Source: Arcanobacterium phocisimile (GTDB taxonomy: Bacteria > Actinomycetota > Actinomycetes > Actinomycetales > Actinomycetaceae). Taken from it: a stretch of DNA of 64,000 bases. Made by a program: the position numbers and the translations under genes. The stretch lies in contig NZ_CP070228.1 in the NCBI RefSeq assembly GCF_016904675.1, positions 744,001 to 808,000 on the forward strand, written 5' to 3'. Positions 23,051 through 34,122 of the stretch are shown one piece after another. The stretch's first letter is position 1, and each line of letters starts with the position of its first letter. The notes below the pieces were generated by a model. It saw only the letters and a program-made list of their open reading frames with translations. It was not told the DNA's origin and did no database searches.

Positions 23051-24172
23051 TTACTTTACACACCTCATGGAGTTTGTGAGAGATTGAAGATTCTTTTCCA
23101 TAATGGAAATGTAGTCAGCGGAATCTTCACCCCGGGTTGCGGCGACGTCGAGGACAGCGAATTGTGCGCCGGTTTCCTTAGCGACAGTCTGGGCTACCTT
23201 CTCTTCACCATTAGTTGGGGTAAAGATAGTATTGATTTTCTCGGTTTCAACCAGTTTCTTAATCTCTGCAATTCGAGCTGGGGACGGTTCGAATTCTGGA
23301 TCAATTCCGGCAACGCCAATCTGCTTGAGACCGTATTCGTGTGCGAGATATCCGAAAGCTGCGTGTGTTACAACAAATGACTTTGTTTCGCAGGTTGCGC
23401 TGAAGGCGGTGTCGAATTTCTGGTCTAGGTCAGTGAGCTTAGTGATGAGAGCCTTAGTGTTGGCCTTGTAGTCCTCAGCGTTTGCTGGGTCTTTTTCACT
23501 TAGCGTGGTTGCAATTGCGTCTGCAGCCTCAGCCATGCGCTCAGGGTCGGTCCAGAAATGTGGGTCGTAGATGCCGTGGTCATGTCCTTCGTGGTCGTGG
23601 TCGGCGTGTTCGTCGTGATCTGCTTCGTGGTCGTGGTCGTGGTCGGCGTGTTCGTCGTGATCTGCTTCGTGGTCGTGATCGTGGTCGGCGTGTTCATCGT
23701 GATCTGCTTCGTGATCGTGGTCGGCATGTTCGTCGTGATCAGCATCCGACTCATGCTCATGATGATGAGCTTCACCGCCAGTTTCTTCATTTGTTAGTAA
23801 ATGAACTGACTCGCCGATGTTAATTGCGTTTGCATCTGCTGAAGCAACGGCATCGTCAATTGCCGGCGAAAGCTTTGCAAGGTAAAAGACAATATCAGAT
23901 TTTTGCATATCTGAAATTTCTTTAGGGGAGAGTTCAACGCCGTGAGCATCGGCTCCCGGTGGGGTGAGGTCAGTAATGCTGACGTGCTCGCCACCAACTT
24001 CAGATACAAGGTATGTTAGCGGATAAAAACTGGTGGTGACAGAAATCTTGCCATCCGCCGTCGTCGCTTTCTCAGAAGCGTCAGTTGAACAACCAATGAG
24101 CGCCAAAGCGCTAGCGCTAGTCAGGGCGATAAATTTTGCGAGAGTCGATACTCGGAAGTTATTTTGTGTCAT
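23051..24172 (-). CDS. znuA: Zinc-binding lipoprotein ZnuA/AdcA with His-rich repeat
   Basis: Cluster A-I substrate-binding lipoprotein of 373 residues. A lipoprotein signal with lipobox ALIGC (Cys near residue 28) anchors it outside the membrane. The fold carries VTTSFYPLTYLVSEVGG at the start, PHFWTDPERM, THAAFGYLAHEYG and GIDPEFEPSPARI, which supply the metal ligands. Between about residues 128 and 200 lies a His/Asp/Glu-rich loop built of tandem units of 12-14 residues (DHDEHADHDHDHEA type), four copies, probably a zinc scavenging or sensing loop. A Zur-box-like site lies 20-34 nt before the start. Confidence 0.93.
   Translation of the reverse strand: MTQNNFRVSTLAKFIALTSASALALIGCSTDASEKATTADGKISVTTSFYPLTYLVSEVGGEHVSITDLTPPGADAHGVELSPKEISDMQKSDIVFYLAKLSPAIDDAVASADANAINIGESVHLLTNEETGGEAHHHEHESDADHDEHADHDHEADHDEHADHDHDHEADHDEHADHDHDHEADHDEHADHDHEGHDHGIYDPHFWTDPERMAEAADAIATTLSEKDPANAEDYKANTKALITKLTDLDQKFDTAFSATCETKSFVVTHAAFGYLAHEYGLKQIGVAGIDPEFEPSPARIAEIKKLVETEKINTIFTPTNGEEKVAQTVAKETGAQFAVLDVAATRGEDSADYISIMEKNLQSLTNSMRCVK
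23590..23751. repeat. Tandem repeat encoding the ZnuA histidine loop
   Basis: About four imperfect copies of a 36-42 bp unit (on the plus strand GTGGTCGGCGTGTTCGTCGT followed by GATCTGCTTC). Copies differ at a few bases, and one or two lack a GTGGTC hexamer. Such in-frame tandem units can vary in number between strains. Confidence 0.85.
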
Positions 24173-29617: not shown

Positions 29618-30850
29618 ATGAAGAATATGACCAAAGTCGTAGCTGTATCCCTAGGATCGCTGATGGCGCTTGCAGCTTGCTCGGGTGGAGACGCTACGTC
29701 GTCATCATCAGAAACTTCAAGTGCAGCAAATAACCAAAAGCCACTCGTTTGGTTCAACCGTCAACCATCTAACTCCTCAACCGGAGATCTTGATATGGAC
29801 GCGTTGAGCTTTAATGACAACACCTACTACGTCGGATTCGATGCATCCCAAGGTGCTGAGCTCCAAGGCCAAATGGTTGCGGAATATATCGAGGCTCACA
29901 AGGACACAGTTGACCGTAATGGTGATGGCAAGATCGGTTATGTTCTTGCTATTGGCGACGTAGGCCATAATGACTCGATTGCTCGCACCCGAGGTGTTCG
30001 TAAAGCACTTGGTACCGCAGTTGAAGAAGGTGGAGCTATCCTTTCCGATCCTACCGAAACCAATGCACAGGCGGTTAAGGAAGGCGAACTTGGAAGCTTC
30101 AAAGTAGTTGAGCTTGCTTCTAAGGAAATGAAGACCGGTGCCGGCGCAACCTGGGATGCAGGTACAGCTGGCGATACCATCACAGCATGGAGCGGTAAGT
30201 TCGGCGATGATATCGACCTTGTCATCTCGAATAACGATGGTATGGGCATGGCAATGTTCAATAAGTGGGCGAAGGCTTCCAAGGTTCCAACTTTCGGCTA
30301 CGATGCAAATTCTGACGCCGTTGCAGCTATCGCTGATGGATACGGCGGTACCATTTCCCAGCACGCAGACGTTCAGGCATACCTCACCTTGCGCGTTTTA
30401 CGTAATGCGCTTGACGGCAAGGATGTCATGGAAGGCATTTCCAAGGCTGACGAAGCTGGAAACGTCTTGTCCGATAAGGACTTCAAGTATGTAGAAGACG
30501 AGCGTTCCTTCTATGCATTGAACGTTGCAGTAGGTGCAGATAACTACCAAGACTTCCTCGACTCAACCGTTACCTACAAGCCAGTGAGCAACCAGGTTAC
30601 CGCTGACACCAAGAAGGTATGGCTTGACATTTACAACTCGGCGGATAACTTCCTCGGTTCAACCTACCAGCCACTTCTTCAGAAGTACGACAAGCTCCTC
30701 AACCTCGATGTTGAGTACATCGGTGGAGACGGACAGACCGAATCCAACATCACCAACCGTCTAGGTAACCCAGGATCGTATGATGCATTTGCGATCAACA
30801 TGGTGAAGACCGATAACGCTTCGTCCTACACCTCGCTTCTCAACCAGTAA
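29618..30850 (+). CDS. Mgl-type sugar-binding lipoprotein, apparently circularly permuted
   Basis: Lipoprotein (lipobox ALAAC, Cys21) of 410 residues and a relative of the galactose/glucose-binding MglB. Residues 41-320 follow MglB from its fourth strand onward: LVWFNRQPS, the Ca2+ loop DRNGDGKIGY (99-108), GHND..AR (117-123), W179, NND (205-207), FGYD (to 229). The normal N-terminal part (first strands, with DNF and AINxV) is not at the N-terminus but at the C-terminus: KVWLDIYNSADNF (333-345) through AINMV (392-396) to residue 410. This is the signature of a circular permutation. The sugar-contacting residues are mostly present, so galactose/glucose is a plausible ligand (inference). First gene of the operon. 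Confidence 0.85.
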   Translation: MKNMTKVVAVSLGSLMALAACSGGDATSSSSETSSAANNQKPLVWFNRQPSNSSTGDLDMDALSFNDNTYYVGFDASQGAELQGQMVAEYIEAHKDTVDRNGDGKIGYVLAIGDVGHNDSIARTRGVRKALGTAVEEGGAILSDPTETNAQAVKEGELGSFKVVELASKEMKTGAGATWDAGTAGDTITAWSGKFGDDIDLVISNNDGMGMAMFNKWAKASKVPTFGYDANSDAVAAIADGYGGTISQHADVQAYLTLRVLRNALDGKDVMEGISKADEAGNVLSDKDFKYVEDERSFYALNVAVGADNYQDFLDSTVTYKPVSNQVTADTKKVWLDIYNSADNFLGSTYQPLLQKYDKLLNLDVEYIGGDGQTESNITNRLGNPGSYDAFAINMVKTDNASSYTSLLNQ

Positions 30851-30883: not shown

Positions 30884-30924
30884 AGAATGGGGTAATCGAA
30901 CATCGGCTTCGATTACCCCATTCT
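30884..30924 (+). terminator. Intercistronic hairpin 2
   Basis: A perfect 17-bp stem (30884-30900 with 30908-30924) around a 7-nt loop lies between the binding-protein and ATPase genes. No T-tract follows; the ribosome site AGAGGAAAGA comes next. This arrangement usually serves to give more binding protein than ATPase and permease. Confidence 0.7.
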
Positions 30925-30940: not shown

Positions 30941-32449
30941 ATGACACACACCACTGAAGATTTAGTTTTGACGATTCGGGGAATGTCAAAATCGTTTGGT
31001 CGTAACCGAGTCTTAGACCATATCGATTTCGATGTGAAACGCGGATCAATCATTGGCTTGATGGGGGAAAACGGCGCCGGCAAGTCAACAATGATGAAAT
31101 GTCTTTTTGGCACGTACCAAAAAGACGAAGGCGAAATTACACTCGATGGACATCCAGTTGCCTTCGCTGGACCTAAGGAAGCTCTGGAAAACGGAATTGC
31201 GATGGTCCACCAGGAGCTCAACCAGGCACTGGAGCGTTCCGTCGTTGATAATCTCTTTCTAGGCCGTTACCCAAAAACAAGCTTGGGAACCATTGATGAA
31301 ACACGTATGCGGCGCGAAGCAGCTGACCTTTTCCGGCAGTTGGGAATGACGGTTAACCTCACTCAGCCAATGCGGAAAATGTCAGTGTCGCAACGCCAAA
31401 TGTGTGAAATTGCTAAAGCTATTTCGTATAAGTCGCAAGTTATTGTACTGGACGAGCCTACGTCGTCGTTGACTGAACCGGAAGTGCGTAAGCTGTTTGA
31501 AATGATGCGCAAGTTGCGGGACAACGGTATATCTTTGGTTTACATTTCGCACAAGATGGATGAAATCTTCGAAATTTGCGATCAAGTTTCAGTGCTGCGT
31601 GACGGTAAGCTAGTGATGACGAAGGATACCGATAAGACGAACATGAACGAGCTCATCACCGCTATGGTGGGGCGCTCACTCGATAATCGTTACCCAGAAG
31701 TAGATAACACTCCGGGTGAACCGATTCTCTCGATCAGTCATCTTTCGACTAAGTTTGCTCCCTACATTAAAGACGTGTCTTTTGATGTCCGTGAAGGCGA
31801 AATTTTTGGTCTCTATGGTCTTGTGGGGGCGGGACGAACTGAGCTCCTTGAAACAATTTTCGGTGTCCGAACCCGTGCAACTGGGCGTGTCTACTACCGT
31901 GGCAAGCTCATGAACTTTAACAAACCACGTGAAGCAATCGATTCCGGATTCGCGCTTATCACTGAAGAGCGCAAAGCGGACGGTCTATTTTTGAAAGGTG
32001 ATTTGACCTTCAATACAACGATTGCGAACCTGCCAGCATATAAGAAGAACGTGGCTCTTTCTGACCGGCGTATGCAAGCTGCGACGGTGTCTGAGATTCG
32101 TACGATGCACACGAAGACTACCGGCCCAGAAGAGCTTATTTCCGCGCTTTCTGGTGGTAACCAGCAGAAGGTTATTTTCGGTCGGTGGCTTGAGCGGGAA
32201 CCGAAAGTTTTCATGATGGATGAGCCGACCCGTGGTATCGACGTCGGTGCAAAATATGAAATCTATGAACTGATCATCCAGATGGCTAAGCGTGGAAAGA
32301 CCGTACTCCTCGTGAGCTCCGAGATGCCAGAAATTCTTGGCATTACCAACCGCATCGGTGTTATGTCGGCCGGCCGTCTCGCCGGCATTGTTGAAACTAA
32401 AGATACTAACCAAGAAGAGCTTCTCCGGCTCAGCGCAAAGTATTTGTAA
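30941..32449 (+). CDS. mglA: Sugar ABC transporter ATPase (MglA type, two NBDs)
   Basis: Double-cassette ATPase of 502 residues, the form found in galactose, ribose and xylose importers. NBD1 has Walker A GENGAGKST (about residue 46), signature MSVSQRQMCEIAKAI and Walker B VIVLDEPTSSL. NBD2 has GLVGAGRTELLE in place of Walker A, which is usual for this family, LSGGNQQKVIFGRWL and FMMDEPTRGIDVG. It follows the intercistronic hairpins with AGAGGAAAGA as ribosome site, and the permease starts 14 nt after it. The Mgl assignment follows from similarity of all three subunits. Confidence 0.9.
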   Translation: MTHTTEDLVLTIRGMSKSFGRNRVLDHIDFDVKRGSIIGLMGENGAGKSTMMKCLFGTYQKDEGEITLDGHPVAFAGPKEALENGIAMVHQELNQALERSVVDNLFLGRYPKTSLGTIDETRMRREAADLFRQLGMTVNLTQPMRKMSVSQRQMCEIAKAISYKSQVIVLDEPTSSLTEPEVRKLFEMMRKLRDNGISLVYISHKMDEIFEICDQVSVLRDGKLVMTKDTDKTNMNELITAMVGRSLDNRYPEVDNTPGEPILSISHLSTKFAPYIKDVSFDVREGEIFGLYGLVGAGRTELLETIFGVRTRATGRVYYRGKLMNFNKPREAIDSGFALITEERKADGLFLKGDLTFNTTIANLPAYKKNVALSDRRMQAATVSEIRTMHTKTTGPEELISALSGGNQQKVIFGRWLEREPKVFMMDEPTRGIDVGAKYEIYELIIQMAKRGKTVLLVSSEMPEILGITNRIGVMSAGRLAGIVETKDTNQEELLRLSAKYL

Positions 32450-32463
32450 GAAAGGGAAGTTTA

Positions 32464-34122
32464 ATGACCATCCTCACCTATGAGAAGGAAGAACAGCTTC
32501 TCGCGCCAATCAAAGAATATGTTGGCACGATTCAAGCTGAGATTGATGCCTTGCGCGAAGACGGAACCACCAAGGCTACCCGCCTTCAGCATGAGTTGCG
32601 CAACATGAAAGCAGATCGCACGCTCTCGAAAGAAGAGCGCGAACAATTGCGTCGTCAGGATGAAAAAGAGTTAGCAGAAGCTAAGAAGGTGCAGTCCGCT
32701 CATCGTCCGCGCATCAATGAACTAATCGCGAAAGCCGAAAAGTATATTGAAGAGAACTTTGACAAGCAGTATTTGAGCAAGGTTGAAGCAAGCGTTGAAG
32801 AAGAAAAGAAGCAGGCGCGAGAAGAGTATCAACGGCGTTTAGACGAAGTTAAGCAGGAGCACGAAGAAGCCGTTGCTCAACTGAAGCAGAGCGATGGAGC
32901 TGACGTTTCACAAGAGCTTAAAGACGAAGAAGTCGTTTACAAAAATAAGCAATATGACGCCAAGGTATCTATGCAACACAGCTTGCAGGCTGCGAAAGAT
33001 CGCCGCCACGCAGCAGTTGCAGAAAAGTACCACATGATCGACTTACTGCGTAATTCGAACTTTACAGTTAAGCAGTCCCTGGCGCAGAAGTGGGAAAACT
33101 ACCGTTACTCCTTCAACCGTCGCCAGTTCCTGCTGAAGAACGGCTTGTACATCGTTATCATTTTAATCTTTATCGCAATGGCGATTTTGGCTCCGATGAC
33201 GAAGGGCGTTGACCTGCTCACCACGCAGAATGTTCTGAACATTTTGCAACAGGCTTCCCCACGTATGTTCTTAGCCTTGGGTGTTGCCGGATTGATCTTG
33301 CTTACTGGTACAGACTTGTCTATCGGACGTATGGTCGGTATGGGCATGGTTATTGCAACAGTAGTTATGCACAAGGGGCCGAATACCGGTAGCGTCTTTG
33401 GTCATGCCTTTGACTTCACCGGCATCCCGATTGGTGGTCGTGTTGTGCTGGCATTGATCGCTTGTATTATCGCAACGACGATCTTCACCATGATCGCCGG
33501 ATTCTTTACCGCGCGATTCAAGATGCACCCATTCGTCTCCACTATGGCAAATATGCTGATCATCTTCGGTTTGGTTACCTACGCAACCAAGGGTGTTAGC
33601 TTCGGTGCAATCGAATCCGATATTCCAAAGATGATCGTGCCAAATGTTTCCGGATTCCCAACCATTATTCTGTGGGCAATCGCAGCAACCATCGTGGTCT
33701 GGTTCATTTGGAACAAGACTACCTTCGGGAAGAACCTCTACGCAGTTGGAGGTAACCCTGAAGCAGCAGCCGTTTCGGGTATTTCTGTTTTCAAGGTGAC
33801 CATGGGAGCCTTCATCCTTGCCGGTATCCTCTACGGCTTCGGATCGTGGCTTGAAGCAGCACGTATGTTCGGTTCCGGTTCGGCCGCCTACGGCCAGGGT
33901 TGGGATATGGATGCTATTGCTGCCTGTGTGGTCGGTGGAGTTTCCTTCACCGGTGGTATTGGAAAGATTTCTGGTGTGGTTACCGGTGTGATGATCTTTA
34001 CCGGTCTGACCTACTCGTTGACTATTCTCGGTATTGACACCAATCTTCAGTTCGTATTCGAAGGAATCATTATTTTGGCTGCGGTCACACTTGATTCTCT
34101 CAAGTATGTTCAGAAGAAGTAA
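32464..34122 (+). CDS. mglC: Sugar ABC permease (MglC type) with N-terminal coiled-coil extension
   Basis: A 552-residue permease; classical MglC is about 340. Residues 1 to about 215 are highly charged (Lys, Glu, Gln, Arg), have no membrane segment, and show long heptad-compatible stretches (for instance EEKKQAREEYQRRLDEV), so a cytoplasmic coiled coil is predicted. From about residue 224 (NGLYIVIILIF) the sequence matches MglC: LALGVAGLILLTGTDLS, NKTTFGKNLYAVGGNPEAA, DAIAACVVGGVSFTGG and the end LDSLKYVQKK. The extension is in one open frame with the permease and has the same codon style. What it does is unknown; it may touch the ATPase or a partner protein. Confidence 0.88.
   Translation: MTILTYEKEEQLLAPIKEYVGTIQAEIDALREDGTTKATRLQHELRNMKADRTLSKEEREQLRRQDEKELAEAKKVQSAHRPRINELIAKAEKYIEENFDKQYLSKVEASVEEEKKQAREEYQRRLDEVKQEHEEAVAQLKQSDGADVSQELKDEEVVYKNKQYDAKVSMQHSLQAAKDRRHAAVAEKYHMIDLLRNSNFTVKQSLAQKWENYRYSFNRRQFLLKNGLYIVIILIFIAMAILAPMTKGVDLLTTQNVLNILQQASPRMFLALGVAGLILLTGTDLSIGRMVGMGMVIATVVMHKGPNTGSVFGHAFDFTGIPIGGRVVLALIACIIATTIFTMIAGFFTARFKMHPFVSTMANMLIIFGLVTYATKGVSFGAIESDIPKMIVPNVSGFPTIILWAIAATIVVWFIWNKTTFGKNLYAVGGNPEAAAVSGISVFKVTMGAFILAGILYGFGSWLEAARMFGSGSAAYGQGWDMDAIAACVVGGVSFTGGIGKISGVVTGVMIFTGLTYSLTILGIDTNLQFVFEGIIILAAVTLDSLKYVQKK

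What the first reader, a model, noticed from the sequence alone, without database searches (positions are those of the whole stretch)
29618..30850. Circularly permuted Mgl-type sugar-binding protein
Aligned by eye with E. coli MglB from memory, the protein starts (after the lipoprotein signal and a Ser-rich linker) at the MglB segment VPVVFFNKEPS (here PLVWFNRQPS, residues 42-51). It follows MglB through the Ca2+ loop (DRNGDGKIGY), GHND..AR, NND and FGYD. The normal MglB N-terminal part (IY..DNF through AINxV) appears at residues 333-410 instead (DIYNSADNF, AINMV), ending exactly where the N-terminal segment would continue. Natural circular permutation of a type I binding protein inside an otherwise conventional operon is rare. 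It would move both chain ends to one point on the first lobe and change how the lipid anchor is attached.
Basis: partly seen in the sequence, partly recalled or inferred. Interest (0 to 1): 0.92.

Follow-up and report, generated by a model that had tools for sequence, protein, structure and literature searches.

The report
Circularly permuted glucose-binding lipoprotein
This gene encodes a sugar-catching surface protein whose chain order is rotated relative to the classic E. coli version; the rearrangement is already known from a spirochaete and from gut bacteria, and here it travels with an unusual membrane partner.

Summary
ORF 29618-30850 is a 410-aa lipoprotein whose MglB N-terminal unit lies at its C-terminus (331-410). 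It aligns end to end with Treponema pallidum TpMglB-2 (TP0684): phmmer E 9.4e-92 to 5JX2; model to 6BGC_B Z 44.1, 357 residues, 2.3 Å. MglB (2GBP) matches colinearly only over model residues 32-316. It is therefore a member of a published permuted class ("Type Ic", PMC4990184), already reported in Gram-positives, and not a new kind.

Three points go further. (1) The 2016 paper left open whether the moved part came from another gene; a profile comparison finds MglB's own N-terminus in register (E 2.9e-4, probability 40; 0 of 300 shuffles as high), moderate support. (2) All ten MglB sugar contacts map to residues invariant in 89 of 89 aligned rows. (3) The permease carries a ~215-aa soluble N-terminal extension in 69 of 69 permuted operons with it in range and 0 of 15 ordinary ones; in 140 genomes of one family the same 16 hold both.

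The cassette is probably horizontally acquired.

The parts
29618..30850 (+). permuted mglB: whole gene, 410 aa
29618..29680 (+). lipoprotein signal, residues 1-21, ending LAAC with Cys21 (lipobox recalled)
   Evidence: sequence
29681..29737 (+). Ser-rich linker, residues 22-40
   Evidence: sequence
29738..30442 (+). core, residues 41-275: MglB from strand 4 of the first lobe onward
   Evidence: hhalign to MglB columns 90-292, E 2.7e-32; HMM 25-276
30443..30607 (+). connector, about residues 276-330, joining the old C-terminal end to the old N-terminal end (limits approximate)
   Evidence: not covered by the ordinary-MglB HMM; aligned to TpMglB-2
30608..30847 (+). moved MglB N-terminal unit, residues 331-410 (strand-helix repeated three times)
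   Evidence: PF18610 at 331-401
30884..30924 (+). 17-bp stem-loop between mglB and mglA
30941..32449 (+). mglA, ABC ATPase, 502 aa
   Evidence: NF008215 MglA model 657 bits, cut-off 828
32464..34122 (+). mglC, permease, 552 aa
   Evidence: NF007014 MglC model at 220-552, 279.8 bits, cut-off 386
32464..33108 (+). soluble N-terminal extension of MglC, residues 1-215

Best explanation
It is the lipid-anchored substrate-binding protein of a CUT2-type ABC importer for D-glucose (perhaps also D-galactose), a member of the TpMglB-2 'Type Ic' class. Sugar is held between two lobes by the same residues as in MglB, the lobes close, and the loaded protein docks on MglC/MglA. The topological difference is that the chain is opened before strand 4 of the first lobe and the old ends are joined by a connector, so the lipid anchor hangs from strand 4 instead of strand 1. 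Shown here: order, homology, fold by model, conservation of the site, operon. Inferred: ligand, transport role, lipidation. The moved part is most likely MglB's own N-terminus (a true permutation, one origin in the set examined), and the cassette probably passed from Bacillota to this lineage.
For: Full-length colinear match to TpMglB-2; AF2 model pLDDT 82.3, pTM 0.81; profile match of the C-segment to the MglB N-terminus, 0 of 300 shuffles as high, reversed profile 14.9; the ordinary-MglB HMM reads the re-ordered window as one domain of 141.5 bits and the native one as two, 125.4 and 6.4; ten sugar contacts invariant in 89 of 89 rows (contact list); mglA and mglC downstream; permuted rows one group at 100/99 on the core tree.
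Against: No ligand was measured. The profile match of the moved part is moderate (probability 40; 16 of 81 aligned positions identical to EcMglB; the neighbour-type MglB subset alone scores 21.2, within the range of the best shuffles). The permuted branch is long (3.83) and the tree tool warns of long branches meeting, so its nearest ordinary relative is unknown. No intermediate with two copies of the unit was found in the ORFs examined. Cassette composition is close to the window's.
Confidence: 0.92

Rival explanations
1. The C-terminal part is not MglB's own N-terminus but was taken from a different gene and converged on the same shape (the alternative named in PMC4990184).
For: Low identity: 16 of 81 positions; the paper gives 13% for TpMglB-2; hhalign probability only 40.
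Against: In-register match from MglB column 1 to 79, directly before the core match that starts at column 90; 0 of 300 shuffles as high; the two sugar contacts of this part, D14 and F16, are kept in 89 of 89 rows.
Confidence: 0.08
2. It is a sensor or chemoreceptor partner rather than a transport protein.
For: MglB has both roles in E. coli (passage); some Bacillota cassettes are followed by kinase genes.
Against: mglA and mglC follow directly here; no kinase gene was seen among the window ORFs listed around it (24-38 kb, by eye); in the Bacillota clusters read, an ordinary MglB sits next to the kinase genes.
Confidence: 0.06
3. Residues 331-410 are an added domain, or the order is a misassembly.
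For: None found.
Against: Same order in 6 of 8 other congeners with a match, in 80 of 80 named loci and in crystal structures.
Confidence: 0.01

Closest known systems
TpMglB-2 / TP0684 of Treponema pallidum (PDB 5JX2, 6BGC, 6BGD), 'Type Ic / Cluster Bc' binding proteins (PMC4990184)
   Same: Permuted order, full-length alignment at about 45% identity, sugar-site residues including Q at the N256 position, operon with mglA and mglC.
   Different: D343 where TpMglB-2 has N311. Whether the treponemal permease has the N-terminal extension could not be checked.
E. coli MglB / canonical Mgl importer
   Same: Core homology, sugar site, Ca2+ loop residues D99, N101, D103, operon mglB-mglA-mglC.
   Different: N-terminal unit at the C-terminus; a connector joins the old ends; E. 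coli MglC (336 aa) has no extension.
Pfam PF18610, Peripla_BP_7
   Same: Residues 331-401, 143.1 bits, cut-off 36.8.
   Different: Nothing noted; the family name does not itself say that this is the moved MglB N-terminus.
Two-binding-protein systems with one transporter and one sensor (CuaA/CuaD, PMC10384115; start of abstract in listing only)
   Same: A second binding protein beside two-component genes, in Bacillota clusters.
   Different: No kinase genes were seen near the window's cassette (by eye); here the transporter form is the permuted one (inference).

Membership tests
TpMglB-2 'Type Ic' permuted binding proteins | Strands 1-3 of lobe 1 supplied by the C-terminus | tested here: met
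   Colinear with 5JX2/6BGC over 34-409; model elements E332-337, E363-368, E390-393
TpMglB-2 'Type Ic' permuted binding proteins | Sugar-binding residues | tested here: met
   10 of 10 positions map; 9 identical to EcMglB, Q248 as in TpMglB-2
TpMglB-2 'Type Ic' permuted binding proteins | Ca2+ loop | tested here: inconclusive
   D99, N101, D103 and D200 kept, G107 in place of Gln; metal binding not testable
TpMglB-2 'Type Ic' permuted binding proteins | Lipoprotein in a cluster with mglA and mglC | tested here: met
   LAAC signal by eye; mglA and mglC downstream; lipidation itself not tested
TpMglB-2 'Type Ic' permuted binding proteins | Binds D-glucose and closes on it | not testable with these tools
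   Needs protein
Canonical MglB (NF011924) | Score over the curated cut-off | tested here: not met
   98.5 against 420 bits
Canonical MglB (NF011924) | N-terminal unit at the N-terminus | tested here: not met
Pfam PF18610 | Score over the gathering cut-off | tested here: met
   143.1 against 36.8 bits

The most novel reading that the evidence does not exclude
The permuted binding protein and the permease with the ~215-aa soluble N-terminal extension are two halves of one obligate importer type, distinct from canonical Mgl. The extension, probably cytoplasmic, gates or regulates the transporter, and the permuted anchor geometry is tuned to it. In a number of Bacillota the canonical MglB is kept beside it as a dedicated sensor for a kinase.
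Probability: 0.15. Interest if true: 0.6.

Novelty: new member of a known kind. Interest (0 to 1): 0.3.

Why it matters
The permutation is real but published. What is useful is support for the view that the moved part is MglB's own N-terminus, a question left open in 2016, and the complete co-occurrence, in the sets tested, with a permease extension for which I found no family and no paper. That makes the purpose of the permutation testable: remove the extension, or use the canonical order, and measure uptake. A relative of MglB that scores far below the MglB model is easily annotated as plain MglB, which hides this importer type.

Tried and rejected
The single-sequence AF2 model was useless (pLDDT 30.3) and was not used. 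By eye the three junctions of the window protein share 'NQ', which suggested a microhomology scar; the family consensus at the N-terminal junction is ANKDKP, so I dropped it. Ordinary MglB genes beside the permuted gene were considered as remnants of a duplication: the tree puts them in another group and the clusters read put them beside kinase genes, so this is not supported, though deep branches are unsure. A viral-contig scan found no relative among 36 pattern matches. Composition gave no clear foreign signature (GC 0.482-0.499 in the three cassette genes, window 0.507). The permuted form is the rarer one in a phylum-wide sample: 2 of 299 genomes have PF18610, 15 of 299 an MglB-model match at E 1e-30 or better. 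Literature, open-licence papers only: searches gave one paper on a permuted MglB; (TP0686) gave the same paper; (MglC, coiled-coil, permease) gave none.

Full report
What is there. Window 29618-30850 encodes a 410-aa protein with a signal ending in LAAC (Cys21), a Ser-rich linker, and then sequence that starts at the MglB segment VPVVFFNKEPS. mglA (30941-32449) and mglC (32464-34122) follow; dgt lies upstream and dnaG downstream (names recalled). A same-genus genome, G004, holds a contig of the same length and the same protein as Arcanobacterium phocae L011, so the window is inferred to be an Arcanobacterium.

Is it permuted? phmmer against PDB sequences gives a full-length match, 39-408 on 20-385, to TP0684 of T. 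pallidum (E 9.4e-92); E. coli and Salmonella MglB match only in pieces of the core. Pfam finds PF13407 at 66-269 and PF18610 at 331-401. A model from a 50-row alignment has pLDDT 82.3 and pTM 0.81; its last 80 residues are strand-helix three times over, as at the start of MglB. The model matches 6BGC_B over 34-409 (Z 44.1, 357 aligned, 2.3 Å), 6BGD (Z 38.5, 4.2 Å) and 5JX2 (Z 37.8, 4.2 Å), but 2GBP only from model 32-316 to chain 54-309 (Z 20.1, 229 aligned, 3.6 Å) (Foldseek ranks agree). The larger rmsd to 5JX2 and 6BGD may reflect lobe opening; this was not tested. No permutation-aware aligner was run.

Is the moved part MglB's own? PMC4990184 (abstract, outline and passages seen; not the whole text) reports the permuted topology of TP0684, proposes 'Type Ic / Cluster Bc', finds it in treponemes and many Gram-positives, and says the part may have come from another gene. 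I compared a profile of residues 325-410 from 89 permuted rows with one of 33 ordinary MglB-like proteins, E. coli MglB (L136) among them. It aligns columns 7-82 to MglB 1-79 (score 30.0, E 2.9e-4, probability 40); the core aligns to 90-292 (E 2.7e-32). None of 300 column shuffles reached 30.0 (best 27.2, median 12.7); the reversed profile gave 14.9; the transporter-type subset (13 rows) alone gave 27.1 and the neighbour-type subset (16 rows) 21.2. The ordinary-MglB HMM scores the re-ordered window as one domain (141.5 bits) and the native one as two (125.4 in the core, 6.4 at 331-403); only 16 of 81 aligned positions of the N-terminal segment are identical to EcMglB. This favours descent from MglB, moderately.

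Function. The ten sugar contacts of EcMglB in the paper's Table 2 map to D343, F345, N47, H117, D119, R123, W179, N206, D229 and Q248; each is invariant in 89 of 89 permuted rows, Q248 being as in TpMglB-2. The Ca2+ loop keeps D99, N101 (88 of 89 rows) and D103, but G107 replaces the glutamine of EcMglB. TpMglB-2 binds D-glucose and changes shape on binding (abstract). Glucose import is the best inference; no ligand was tested.

Distribution. Of 59 genomes (own included) 8 have the protein: 7 of 9 in the genus, 1 of 28 in other genera of the family, 0 of 22 in other families of the order. Of 396 genomes of the phylum 8 have PF18610: the own genome and seven from two other, unnamed families. 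A scan of named species genomes confirmed 371 of 406 candidate stretches as relatives and kept 80, most with titles of Lachnospiraceae or other Bacillota; all 80 have the permuted order. In the phylum of G450 (Anaerobutyricum hallii) 2 of 299 genomes have PF18610, in its family 16 of 140. On a core tree of 56 rows the 23 permuted rows are one group (100/99), and the window sits with congener L009, then an Actinomycetaceae MAG (L010), then a Bacillota MAG (L013). A quick MglC tree gives L011, L012 and L013 as nearest rows, in that order. In congener G003 (L172), which lacks the protein, dgt and dnaG are about 75 bases apart; in G006 (L173) the cassette and a rhodanese-like gene lie between them. 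The other congener without it, G002, has only a dnaG fragment at a contig end and could not be read. Gain or loss within the genus is not shown; the tree favours acquisition from Bacillota.

The operon is not ordinary. MglC is 552 aa and its permease domain starts near residue 218. Of the 80 named loci, 68 have an MglC over 100 bits in range, and all 68, and the window, carry the extension; 12 have none in range. None of 15 ordinary stretches (14 from the phylum of G450 and E. coli) carries it. Four operons from the other families of the window's phylum have MglC of 548-554 aa. A profile of the extension (22 rows) finds exactly the 16 of 140 genomes that PF18610 finds, and in 396 genomes of the window's phylum the same 8 as strong hits, plus two weak ones (E about 1e-4) that I take for chance. 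The window copy has no Pfam match at E 0.1 and the profile no PDB match better than E 0.021. It is 39% charged, without a hydrophobic stretch before residue 220. MglC proteins of permuted operons form one group (24 of 39 rows, SH-aLRT 100; quick tree with long branches). That the extension is cytoplasmic is inferred from the usual permease topology (recalled).

Two forms side by side. In L161 (Blautia), L162 (Anaerobutyricum) and L163 (Enterococcus) the cassette is followed by a response regulator, a histidine kinase, a second binding-protein-like gene and an ordinary MglB; in L162 two other ORFs lie between kinase and binding-protein genes (domains tested for L161 only). In nine loci an ordinary MglB lies 43-224 bases upstream of the permuted gene, in two more about 1.8 kb upstream. 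A reasonable reading is that the permuted form transports and the canonical form senses; a precedent for such a division is CuaA/CuaD (PMC10384115, start of abstract in the listing).

Verdict. The class is published, so novelty is a new member of a known kind. The permease extension is the lead worth following.

Noticed in passing
window 32464-33108: MglC of permuted operons has a ~215-aa charged, soluble N-terminal extension without a Pfam or good PDB match; present in 69 of 69 permuted operons in range, 0 of 15 ordinary.
   Followed up: yes
window 30884-30924: A 17-bp stem-loop between mglB and mglA (z -6.8, 0 of 200 shuffles as stable). By eye it recurs in five of seven other loci aligned, some with matching changes on both sides; pairs were not counted. 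It may set the ratio of binding protein to ATPase.
   Followed up: partly
L161, L162, L163; L027, L064: Ordinary MglB coexists with permuted MglB in one cluster, beside response regulator and kinase genes.
   Followed up: partly
L159 1500-1660 (congener G005): The binding-protein gene changes frame between signal and mature part; a broken gene or a sequencing error. Described only.
   Followed up: no
L172 2300-2430 (congener G003): dgt and dnaG lie next to each other without the cassette or the rhodanese-like gene.
   Followed up: yes
L091, L092, L093, L096, L097, L098 (N-termini): In two other families of the phylum the permuted protein has an RR-F twin-arginine-like signal, unlike the Sec-type signals in Arcanobacterium and Bacillota (by eye).
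   Followed up: no
window 23051-24172 (-): A metal-binding-lipoprotein-like ORF with a long His/Asp/Glu repeat (HDHEADHDEHAD), likely a zinc-binding protein (by eye).
   Followed up: no
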